Assembly: GCA_903911455.1 (NCBI GenBank)
Contig: CAIWDQ010000623.1
Span: forward strand, 1-34,721
Source: an uncultured bacterium
GTDB taxonomy: Bacteria; Bacteroidota; Bacteroidia; Bacteroidales; JACABE01
DNA length: 34,721 bases
Reading direction: 5' to 3'
Within the stretch, counting starts at the first letter, position 1; the number at the start of each line of letters is the position of its first letter. The position numbers and the translations under genes were made by a program. Shown here piece after piece: positions 6,741 to 24,529 of the stretch. The notes below the pieces were generated by a model, which was given only the letters and a program-made list of their open reading frames with translations, had not been told where the DNA came from and did no database searches.

Positions 6741-8150
6741 ATGACAGATTCTAATCTAACATACAAAGTAGCTGACATTAAATTAGCGGATTGGGGCAGA
6801 AAAGAAATAGAAATTGCCGAGAAAGAGATGCCGGGTTTGATGTCTTTAAGAAAGAAATATGGTGCTGAGAAACCATTAAAGGGTGCCAGAATTACCGGTT
6901 CTCTTCACATGACGATTCAAACTGCAGTCTTAATTGAAACATTGACAGAATTAGGTGCTGATGTTCGTTGGGCAAGTTGTAATATCTTTTCAACTCAGGA
7001 TCATGCAGCAGCAGCGATTGCAGCAGCAGGTATTCCTGTGTTTGCCTGGAAAGGTGAAACTCTTGAAGAGTATTGGTGGTGCACTAATCAGGCATTAGCT
7101 TTTCCTGGCGGCAAAGGTCCTAACTTGATTGTGGACGATGGTGGCGATGCTACCCTCTTTATTCACATTGGTTTCAAGGCTGAGAAAGATGCAAGTGTTT
7201 TAGATAAAACTCCTGAGAGCAGAGAAGAAGGAATTATTTTAAATGCATTAAAAGATATCTTAAAAGAAGATAATCAAAGATGGACTAAGGTAGTTGCTGA
7301 GCTTAAAGGTGTTTCTGAAGAAACTACAACAGGTGTTCATCGTCTGTACCAGATGATGGAAAAGGGTGAATTATTGATCCCTGCTATCAATGTTAACGAT
7401 TCAGTTACTAAATCTAAGTTTGATAACCTTTACGGATGTCGCGAATCTTTGGCTGACGGTATTAAACGTGCTACAGATGTTATGATTGCCGGCAAAGTTG
7501 TTATCGTTTTAGGTTATGGTGATGTTGGTAAGGGTTGTGCACATTCAATGCGCTCTTACGGTGCCAGAGTTATCGTTACCGAGATTGATCCTATCTGTGC
7601 TTTACAAGCTGCAATGGAAGGTTTTGAAGTAAATACCATGAACGATGCAGTTACCGAAGGTAATATATTTGTAACTACTACAGGTAATAAAGATGTAATC
7701 ACTGTTGAGCACATGGCTCGCATGAAAGATCAGGCAATTGTATGTAATATTGGCCATTTTGACAACGAAATTCAAGTTGATTTGCTTAATGAATTTCCTG
7801 GTATTAATATGATCAATATCAAACCTCAGGTTGATAAGTATATTTTCCCTGACGGACATGCTATCTTCATGTTAGCTGAAGGTCGTTTGGTTAATTTAGG
7901 TTGTGCTACAGGTCATCCTTCTTTTGTAATGAGTAATTCTTTCACAAATCAGACCTTAGCTCAGTTAGATCTTTGGAAAAACAAGTTTGAAATTGGTGTT
8001 TATCGTCTTTCAAAACAATTAGACGAAGAAGTTGCTCGTTTACATTTAGAAAATATAGGTGTAAAGCTAACTAAACTTACTCCCGAACAGGCTGCTTACA
8101 TCAGCGTACCTGTTGAAGGACCATACAAAGCGGATCACTACCGTTACTAG
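6741..8150 (+). CDS. ahcY: Adenosylhomocysteinase
   Basis: [50 protein letters not shown]-terminal [10 protein letters not shown]. Confidence 0.98.
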
Positions 8151-8153
8151 AAG

Positions 8154-8279
8154 AAGAAAGTGCCTTGAGTACTTGGATTGCCTTGAGTACTTAGAGTTAT
8201 AAAGGCAATTAATAATAAGAAAGTGTCTTGAGTACTTGGATTACTTAGAGTATTTAGAGTTGAAAAGGCATTAAATAAT
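8154..8279. repeat. Two ~63-bp direct copies, each containing 9-bp period repeats
   Basis: 8162-8197 gccttgagt acttggatt gccttgagt acttagagt; 8225-8260 gtcttgagt acttggatt acttagagt atttagagt. Both are flanked by aagaaagtg ... aaggca(a)ttaataat. Confidence 0.8.
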
Positions 8280-8282
8280 ATT

Positions 8283-8317
8283 AAAGCTCTGTCATTTACT
8301 TGGCAGAGCTTTTTGTT
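8283..8317 (+). terminator. Intrinsic terminator of ahcY
   Basis: AAAGCTCTG ... CAGAGCTTT stem followed by a T-rich stretch. Confidence 0.8.
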
Positions 8318-8652: not shown

Positions 8653-8779
8653 TTTAGTATGATTTATTATTTATAACAAGAGGAAATGGATAATTTATTT
8701 CTAAAATAAATAATTTTAGATGGCAATTTTATCAATACAATTTCCATTAATAAAGACTCAGATTTCAAATTAGGCAGTC

Positions 8780-9003
8780 GAGGTCTCAACTTTGTCATTG
8801 GAAGTCTCAACTTCATCAGTGGAGGTCTCGGAAGAGTCATTGGAAGTCTCAACTTCATCAGTGGAGGTCTCGGAAGAGTCATCCGAAGTCTCGGAAGAGT
8901 CATTGGAAGTCTCAACTTCGTTAATGGAAGTCTCAACTTCGTTAGTTGAAGTCTCAACTTCATTAGTGGAAGCCTCAACTTCATCATTGGAAGTCTCGAC
9001 TGC
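8780..9003. repeat. 21-bp tandem array, 10.7 units, no indels (array 1)
   Basis: Units such as GAAGTCTCAACTTCATCAGTG and GAGGTCTCGGAAGAGTCATTG in exact 21-bp register; GAAGT-ctca-ACTTC is an internal dyad; array edges are GCAGTCGAG and CTCGACTGC. Confidence 0.95.
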
Positions 9004-9108: not shown

Positions 9109-9158
9109 AACAAAAAACCGCTTAACAGTAAAAGAACTATTAAGCGGTAACATTTTTT
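9109..9158. terminator. Bidirectional intrinsic terminator, 3' of pyrD
   Basis: ACCGCTTAA(c)AG ... CT(a)TTAAGCGGT stem with A-run (caaaaaacc) on the left and T-run (cattttttc) on the right. Confidence 0.75.
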
Positions 9159-9186: not shown

Positions 9187-9258
9187 TAAATCATTAAATC
9201 ACAAATTTACTATATCACCAAATCTCTAAATCACCATATCACCAAATCACCAAATACT
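9187..9258. repeat. Degenerate 8-bp tandem tract abutting the pyrD stop codon
   Basis: TAAATCAT TAAATCAC AAATTTAC TATATCAC CAAATCTC TAAATCAC CATATCAC CAAATCAC CAAATACT. Confidence 0.85.
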
Positions 9259-10166
9259 TATCTTAATCCCCCAATGATATCATAAACAGAGTTATGGCGA
9301 TGTCGACGGAGGTAATCTTCAATACCATCAATAATTTTAACAGATACTGCCGGATCAATGAAGTTAGCGGTACCGATCTGGATAGCAGTAGCTCCGCAAA
9401 GCAGAAATTCAATAGCATCAGTGGCAGTCATAATGCCACCCATACCAATTACAGGTATCTTTACAGCTTTCGAAACTTGCCAAACCATACGTAAAGCAAT
9501 AGGTTTAACGGCAGGGCCTGACAAACCACCTGTTATAGTTGACAAAAGAGGTCTTTTACGTTCGGCATCAATTGCCATCCCTAATAAGGTATTAATTAAA
9601 GAAACCGAATCGGCACCAGCAGCTTCAACAGCCACAGCCATCTCGGCAATATTGGTTACATTTGGCGAAAGCTTCACAATTAAAGTCTTCTTGTAAACTT
9701 CTCGTATCGCTTTTGTTACAGTACTTGCCGAATGGCAACTAGTACCAAAAGCCATACCGCCTTCTTTAACATTAGGACACGAAATATTAAGCTCAATAGC
9801 AGGTATTTTATCCAACTCATTAAGTTTAGATGCCACCTCAATGTACTCTTCAACAGTTGAGCCCGAAACATTAACGATAAAATGAGTATCAATATCCTTG
9901 ATGCGAGGATAAATATCGGAGATAAAGTAATCAACGCCTTTGTTTTGCAATCCAACAGCATTCAGCATTCCCATTGGAGTTTCGGCCATGCGTGGATACG
10001 CGTTGCCTTCGCGATGTGCACCTGTAGTTCCTTTAACAAAAATGCCGCCCAACCTTGCAATATCAAAGAAATCAGTAAACTCTTCGCCGTAACCGAATGT
10101 TCCCGATGCCGTCATCACAGGATTCTTAAGATATAAATCTTTTATAGTAACGCCTAAATCAATCAT
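9258..10166 (-). CDS. pyrD: Dihydroorotate dehydrogenase, type 1B catalytic subunit
   Basis: [46 protein letters not shown]; adjacent to pyrK. Confidence 0.95.
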
Positions 10167-18853: not shown

Positions 18854-19080
18854 GTTTTTAGATACTGAAATATTTGTCCCAAAATTACTAATAATTATTG
18901 ATTAATTATGAATAATTATTAATGTTTTATTCTTATTTAAATTAGTTCTAATTATAAAGTGATTTAATTGTCTAGTAAATAAGTTATCAACTTTAAGTAA
19001 TATAAAAGTTGTTATCATAAAATATATCGAAACTAAAAAGAGTGATGCTATGTGTTTATATTATAAGCTATTGGTATAAT

Positions 19081-19332
19081 AAAAAAACGTTGCGGATGGG
19101 TAAAACAACTTTGCACCTACATAAAACAACTTTGCGCCTACCTTAAACAACTTTACTCCTTGGTAAAACAACTTTGATTCTGACTAAAACAACATTCCAT
19201 CTGCAAAAAAGAACTTTGATTCTAACTTAAACAACTTTACACCTAAGTTAAACGACTTTACTCTTCTATAAAATAACATTACACCTTCAAAAAAGAACTT
19301 TGATTCTACCTAAAACAACTTTACACTAATAT
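19081..19332. repeat. 21-bp tandem array, 12 units, no indels (array 2)
   Basis: aaaacaactttgcacctacat / aaaacaactttgcgcctacct / taaacaactttactccttggt / aaaacaactttgattctgact / aaaacaacattccatctgcaa / aaaagaactttgattctaact ... exact 21-bp register for 252 bp. Confidence 0.95.
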
Positions 19333-23950: not shown

Positions 23951-24187
23951 AGTGGTTTCAATTGACCCATTTAAACATACTTTTTACTAAAATGTTCACA
24001 GGATAATCTTTGTATAGACCTTGAATGCAAAGTCTCATTAAATAAAAAAACCGTCATTGCGAGCCCAATACTTTCAGCATACCAAATGAAATTAAAAACC
24101 TGACAAACATTAAAAATCAACTGTATTGATTAATAAAATAATTTAATATTAAATTTTAACAAAGTGTTAATTAAAAAAAAGATAGTA

Positions 24188-24455
24188 GTTTAAAGTTTCA
24201 AACACCTCCATTTTCAAAAAATATACTGTTTGAAAGTTTCAAGTACTCTTTATTTCAAAAAATATACTGTTTGGAAGTACCAAGTACCATCTTTTTCAAA
24301 AAATATAGTGTTTGAAAGTTTCAGGTAGTATTTTTTTCAAAAAATAAAATGAGAAAAAAGTTTCAAGTACCATCTTTTTCAAAAAATGTATTGTTTGAAA
24401 GTTCCAAGGTGTCCATATTTCAAAAAATACTATAGTTGAAAGTTTCAAAGTGTCT
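24188..24455. repeat. ~41-bp degenerate tandem array, 6 units plus partial (array 3)
   Basis: Unit GTTTGAAAGTTTCAAGTACCATCTTTTTCAAAAAATATACT, unit lengths 40-42 bp, containing the dyads TTGAAAgTTTCAA and TTTTTcAAAAA. Confidence 0.9.
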
Positions 24456-24529
24456 ATATTTATTTATCAATGTCTGGCGAAAGTACTCACAGCTTTATAA
24501 AAATATATTTTCATTAGTTAGTAGTTTTT

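What the first reader, a model, noticed from the sequence alone, without database searches (positions are those of the whole stretch)
8780..9003. Array 1: 21-bp tandem array with two unit subtypes and an internal dyad
10.7 units with no indels. Two unit types alternate irregularly (A: GAAGTCTCAACTTC..., B: GAGGTCTCGGAAGAG...). Each A unit contains the dyad GAAGT-ctca-ACTTC. Array edges carry inverted 9-mers GCAGTCGAG/CTCGACTGC. It lies in the ahcY/pyrD convergent gap. 21 bp equals two B-DNA turns and seven codons, so either same-face protein binding or a degraded heptad-coding repeat would preserve register.
Basis: partly seen in the sequence, partly recalled or inferred. Interest (0 to 1): 0.7.

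Follow-up and report, generated by a model that had tools for sequence, protein, structure and literature searches.

The report
One of many helix-paced intergenic satellites
The 21-base tandem array is real and is one of an estimated 350-450 such arrays in this Bacteroidales genome, nearly all unrelated in sequence but almost all repeating every 21, 41 or 42 bases (two or four turns of the double helix); they belong to a described but unexplained class of bacterial 'satellites' and array 1 is probably not coding.

Summary
The array at 8780-9003 is real: about 10.7 units of 21 bp without indels, far beyond chance. Some details fail. The dyad is intact in about half the A-type units and is not significant, the alternation is a short 42-bp dimer expansion, and the edge inverted 9-mers are borderline (p=0.09). 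The array looks non-coding and lies between the terminator-like hairpins that follow ahcY and pyrD.

It is one of a genome-wide class. In 847 kb of this genome I found 72 arrays with periods of 21, 41/42 or multiples and very few at other periods (extrapolated total 350-450). Of 43 classifiable arrays 42 are intergenic. Apart from small families of 2-3 dispersed copies (array 1 has one sister, 75% identical), units are no more alike than shuffled ones. One relative of the same family has similar arrays; another shows none in 111 kb.

This matches the published 'constant repeat length, variable sequence' 20-21-nt bacterial satellites (PMC8161180), function unknown. New here: a Bacteroidales host, high density, 41/42-bp arrays without a 21-bp subrepeat. 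Best reading: mostly non-adaptive satellites made by a duplication process quantised in helical turns, then decaying. A curvature or architectural role is the main rival.

The parts
8760..9003 (.). Array 1: 21-bp tandem array, about 10.7 clear units (8780-9003) plus a decayed unit from about 8760
8794..8892 (.). 42-bp dimer (A+B units) expanded 2.4 times inside array 1, 96% identical
8774..8782 (+). Left edge 9-mer GCAGTCGAG, inverted match of the right edge; borderline (p=0.09)
8995..9003 (+). Right edge 9-mer CTCGACTGC
6741..8150 (+). ahcY (adenosylhomocysteinase), convergent neighbour
8283..8312 (+). Terminator-like hairpin with T-run after ahcY
9117..9148 (-). Terminator-like hairpin with T-run after pyrD
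9258..10166 (-). pyrD (dihydroorotate dehydrogenase), convergent neighbour
19080..19326 (.). Second array of the same class in the window, period 21, unrelated unit
24123..24461 (.). Third array of the same class in the window, period 41, unrelated unit

Best explanation
Array 1 is one member of a genome-wide class of intergenic satellites whose repeat length is quantised at two or four helical turns (21, 41/42 bp) while the sequence is free. Shown: the period spectrum, intergenic location, unrelated units, decay by substitution, small dispersed families of 2-3 copies. Inferred: each array arose locally by serial duplication of whatever intergenic sequence was there, through a process that steps by whole helical turns (for example slippage or template switching of a loop held on one face of the helix). 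Arrays inside genes are removed by selection, the rest decay by point mutation, and now and then a block is copied elsewhere. On this reading array 1 has no sequence-specific job next to ahcY and pyrD.
For: Lag spectrum 21 (33), 41 (15), 42 (44), 63 (22), other lags from 10 to 65 at most one each; 72 arrays in 847 kb. Units no more alike than shuffled ones outside obvious families. 42 of 43 classifiable arrays intergenic with no orientation pattern. Consensus-to-variant changes run GC-to-AT 0.142 against AT-to-GC 0.083, the direction of mutational decay in an AT-rich genome. Enriched-motif columns not better conserved. Present in one family member and not seen in others. Array 1 has one sister. 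Array 1 lies beyond both terminators.
Against: No duplication machinery was identified; Ku is absent from all five family genomes and Y1 transposase counts do not follow the arrays. Arrays are GC-richer than their flanks (0.378 against 0.252), which local duplication of flank-like DNA does not predict. Paralogous arrays are slightly less diverged than their flanks and keep unit number. Excess 10.5-bp bending hints at a constraint. The absence from genes may owe more to targeting than to selection.
Confidence: 0.45

Rival explanations
1. Architectural DNA: any bent unit repeated at whole helical turns adds up to planar curvature, so the period but not the sequence is selected, perhaps to seat a nucleoid protein or hold a supercoil apex. 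This is the nucleoid idea of Subirana and Messeguer in a sequence-free form.
For: Excess in-phase bend of 21-bp units at the 10.5-bp harmonic only (mean rank 0.28, z=-3.2, eight other harmonics near 0.5); AA/TT rhythm weaker (z=-2.1); periods 21, 41, 42 near integer turns; arrays less diverged than flanks in paralog pairs.
Confidence: 0.3
2. A sequence-specific protein binds a motif in each unit (same-face binding).
For: TCCGA/TCGGA enriched, 12 against 2.1 expected, Bonferroni 9e-4; array 1 B units hold TCGGAA; about 40% of 41/42-bp arrays have a significant dyad.
Against: Motif in 10 of 58 arrays and no better conserved than the rest (0.138 against 0.144); 21-bp arrays show no dyad excess worth the name (2 of 22); units otherwise unrelated.
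Confidence: 0.1
3. Mobile element body: arrays are the core of small non-autonomous elements copied around the genome.
For: 2-3-copy families with shared flanks beside non-paralogous genes; edge inverted repeats in 12 of 64 arrays at p<0.05.
Against: Homology ends at different places in different pairs, no common end sequence, very low copy number; array 1 and its sister share little beyond the repeats.
Confidence: 0.15
4. Small non-coding RNA, as proposed for Bacillus satellites.
For: RNA-seq reads from 52-nt arrays of B. coagulans (PMC8625621); part of the 41/42-bp arrays fold better than permuted.
Against: Array 1 folds no better than permuted, lies beyond both terminators with no promoter-like excess, and has no Rfam match over cut-off.
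Confidence: 0.06
5. Remnant of a heptad-coding protein repeat.
For: 21 = 7 codons; open frames on both strands (77 aa with TTG start on +, 106 aa on -).
Against: Open frames come free with a stop-less 21-bp unit; substitutions 12/12/16 by column modulo 3 and near-neutral syn:nonsyn; no convincing family match; 41-bp arrays cannot encode such a repeat.
Confidence: 0.02

Closest known systems
Constant-length, variable-sequence bacterial satellites, 20-21 nt class (Subirana and Messeguer, PMC8161180)
   Same: Period 20-21, unit sequence free, mostly non-coding, several small families per genome, some 40-41 nt arrays, patchy among relatives
   Different: Bacteroidales host; density about 85-100 per Mb (other detection method); abundant 41/42-bp arrays, about half without 21-bp subrepeat; no dominant motif
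52-nt satellites of Bacillus (same papers)
   Same: Constant length near whole helical turns (5 x 10.4), variable sequence, internal inverted words
   Different: No 52-bp class here
Borg tandem repeats (PMC9879509)
   Same: Independent local origin, patchy among related genomes
   Different: Borg arrays are perfect, variable in period, about half inside ORFs; here degenerate, period-quantised, intergenic
REP/BIME elements
   Same: Intergenic, palindromes in part of the arrays
   Different: REPs share one sequence genome-wide (own knowledge); here units are unrelated
Plasmid iterons
   Same: About 20-22 bp phased repeats (own knowledge)
   Different: One sequence per replicon next to a rep gene; here hundreds of unrelated arrays by ordinary genes
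Leptospira interrogans intergenic satellites (PMC6749651)
   Same: Intergenic satellite families dispersed in a bacterial chromosome
   Different: Long repeats in shared families there; period-locked short units here

Membership tests
Subirana-Messeguer 20-21 nt satellites | Repeat length constant at 20-21 nt | tested here: met
   array 1 is 21 bp; genome spectrum peaks at 21, 41, 42
Subirana-Messeguer 20-21 nt satellites | Sequence variable between arrays of one genome | tested here: met
   pairwise unit similarity 0.404 against 0.401 shuffled
Subirana-Messeguer 20-21 nt satellites | Generally non-coding | tested here: met
   42 of 43 classifiable arrays intergenic; array 1 substitutions not codon-like
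Subirana-Messeguer 20-21 nt satellites | Several small families per genome, species-specific | tested here: met
   2-3-copy families; array 1 unmatched in 39 relatives; no genome of the same genus held
Subirana-Messeguer 20-21 nt satellites | Characteristic short word in most arrays of a genome | tested here: inconclusive
   TCCGA enriched but in 10 of 58 arrays, not conserved
Subirana-Messeguer 20-21 nt satellites | Transcribed (shown only for 52-nt arrays) | not testable with these tools
   no RNA data; array lies beyond both terminators
CRISPR array | Constant repeats separated by unique spacers | tested here: not met
   head-to-tail units with no spacer
REP/BIME | One shared palindromic sequence genome-wide | tested here: not met
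MITE | Fixed ends with terminal inverted repeats, many copies | tested here: not met
   copies 2-3, variable ends
MITE | Target-site duplication | not tested
   element ends could not be defined
Iteron origin | Next to a replication initiator gene | tested here: not met
   neighbours are ahcY and pyrD
Protein-coding heptad repeat | Codon-position bias of substitutions | tested here: not met
   12/12/16
VNTR | Copy number varies between strains | not testable with these tools
   no sibling strain held

The most novel reading that the evidence does not exclude
Some bacteria carry a process, or a nucleoprotein, that counts whole helical turns and so creates or keeps hundreds of intergenic arrays of unrelated sequence at 2- or 4-turn periods (21, 41/42 bp here; perhaps 5 turns for the 52-nt arrays of Bacillus). 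Sequence is irrelevant; helical phase is the information.
Probability: 0.35. Interest if true: 0.8.

Novelty: new member of a known kind. Interest (0 to 1): 0.5.

Why it matters
Constant-length, variable-sequence bacterial satellites have been reported but not explained. This genome is a dense example outside Bacillus, with repeat lengths that are near-integer helical turns and one of which (41) rules out a codon explanation. That turns a vague puzzle into a specific test: does helical phase, not sequence, define these arrays, and is it made by a duplication process or kept by a protein?

Tried and rejected
Heptad-coding repeat: rejected. RNA element: no Rfam family over cut-off, no excess folding for array 1. 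Dyad as protein site: not significant. Common descent of all arrays: no residual similarity between units beyond obvious families. Phage, plasmid or viral origin of the unit: no match. REP-transposase link: Y1_Tnp counts do not follow arrays. Ku-dependent repair of paired nicks: no Ku in five family genomes. Orthologous empty site: not available, ahcY not found next to pyrD in the relatives examined. Gene paralogy as cause of array families: flanking genes of sequence-related arrays are not paralogous. Indel purging: not significant (p=0.13). The J Bacteriol 2020 paper on this class was not held.

Full report
OBSERVATION. From 8780 to 9003 the sequence aligns in 21-base rows without indels; a decayed unit can be seen back to about 8760. 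A self-match score of 89 at lag 21 compares with none of 15 or more in 12 first-order Markov windows of equal length. The details hold less well. The dyad GAAGT-ctca-ACTTC is intact in only about half of the A-type units; a 5-bp stem occurs in 7% of shuffled 21-mers; a whole-unit dyad test gives p=0.45; and RNA folding does not beat column-permuted arrays. The A/B alternation is limited to units 2-6, a 42-bp dimer expanded 2.4 times (8794-8892). The edge 9-mers exist, but p=0.09.

SURROUNDINGS. ahcY and pyrD converge on the array. A terminator-like hairpin with T-run follows each gene, at 8283-8312 (+) and 9148-9117 (-), so the array lies beyond both. Promoter-like sites in the gap are fewer than in shuffles. 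Two ORFs overlap the array because a stop-less 21-bp unit stays open, but substitutions are spread 12/12/16 over the three positions, synonymous and nonsynonymous changes are near expectation in the plus-strand frames, and neither ORF convincingly resembles a known family.

A GENOME-WIDE CLASS. The window holds two more arrays, at 19080-19326 (21 bp) and 24123-24461 (41 bp), with unrelated units. I read 847 kb (about 19%) of the genome G000. It holds 83 tandem arrays, 72 of them with period 20-21, 41-44 or a multiple. The lag spectrum is 21 (33), 41 (15), 42 (44), 63 (22), with one each at 16, 20, 24, 40 and 44 and no other lag from 10 to 65. Density is about 85 per Mb overall and about 100 per Mb in contigs not chosen for any hit, so roughly 350-450 genome-wide; this is an extrapolation. 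Median length is 224 bp and median lag identity 0.82. Of 43 arrays that can be classified, 42 are intergenic, with neighbours ++ 10, -- 11, -+ 12, +- 9, and at least 47 bp from a gene (genes there are ORFs of 120 aa or more, not curated calls).

SEQUENCE RELATIONS. Array 1 has one relative in the genome, at C305 (75% identity, shared over the repeats and about 11 bp beyond one edge). Several other arrays form families of 2-3 dispersed copies, some with up to about 170 bp of shared flank, beside non-paralogous genes. Outside such families, 21-bp units are no more alike than shuffled ones (0.404 against 0.401). One word, TCCGA/TCGGA, is enriched (12 against 2.1 expected), but in only 10 of 58 arrays and not at better-conserved columns.

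RELATIVES. About 1.18 Mb of other Bacteroidales DNA gives a handful, some coding. Array 1 itself has no significant match in 39 relatives, and ahcY was not found next to pyrD in the relatives examined, so there is no empty site to compare.

WHAT THE CLASS IS PACED BY. 41 bp is not a codon multiple, and 21, 41 and 42 bp are near two and four helical turns, so helix geometry is the natural common factor (inference). A model-free AA/TT rhythm is weaker (z=-2.1). Arrays of 41 and true 42 bp show a 20.5-21 bp rhythm (z about -2.5 to -2.7). This is suggestive, not decisive: samples are small, several tests were made and none was replicated. Column mutability shows no 10.5-bp rhythm.

SELECTION OR NOT. 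Against selection on sequence: motif columns are not conserved, changes run AT-ward, the indel:substitution ratio is not significantly lower in arrays than in flanks (26:299 against 34:255, p=0.13), there is no orientation pattern, and presence is patchy among relatives. For some constraint: array GC is 0.378 against 0.252 in flanks, several paralogous arrays keep unit number and register and arrays are slightly less diverged than flanks (299 of 2255 against 255 of 1433), and bending is in excess. I therefore prefer a mostly non-adaptive process that duplicates in helical-turn steps, with an architectural role as the main rival.

KNOWN CLASS. PMC8161180 describes Bacillus genomes in which most tandem repeats are 20-21 or 52 nt long with variable sequence and no known function, notes a few related 40-41 nt repeats, states that the 20-21 nt type occurs in many bacterial groups, and remarks that 20-21 nt is two helix turns. 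Array 1 meets the defining features that could be tested. What this genome adds is a Bacteroidales host, high density, and abundant 41/42-bp arrays, about half of the 42-bp ones and nearly all of the 41-bp ones without a significant 21-bp subrepeat. The founding 2020 paper could not be read, so whether Bacteroidetes examples are already listed there is unknown to me.

VERDICT. Real, apparently non-coding, one of hundreds; a new member of a described but unexplained class. The single array is ordinary within that class; the class, with its helical quantisation, is the interesting object.

Noticed in passing
window 8154-8280: 63-bp direct duplication (85%) with AGTACTTAGAGT-type words just after the ahcY stop codon; this kind of word recurs elsewhere in the genome.
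   Followed up: no
window 9188-9255: Degenerate 8-bp AAATCACC repeats just 3' of pyrD; unlike array 1, this word is shared in sequence by many loci (L057, L142, L168, L173, L177). A different class of repeat.
   Followed up: partly
window 19080-19326 and 24123-24461: Two further arrays of the same helix-paced class, periods 21 and 41, with unrelated units.
   Followed up: yes
L042 (C305) 2165-2506: A Y1 transposase (PF01797) with an internal stop lies about 1 kb from the sister of array 1.
   Followed up: partly
L078:5850-6199: A Prevotellaceae MAG has a 16.7-copy, 21-bp array at a contig end with a palindromic unit (CACTCG...CGAGTG); the class may reach other Bacteroidales.
   Followed up: no
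L120:12129-12333: A Bacteroidales MAG (UBA6267) has a 32-bp-period intergenic array of 6.3 copies, about three helical turns, which would fit helical quantisation.
   Followed up: no
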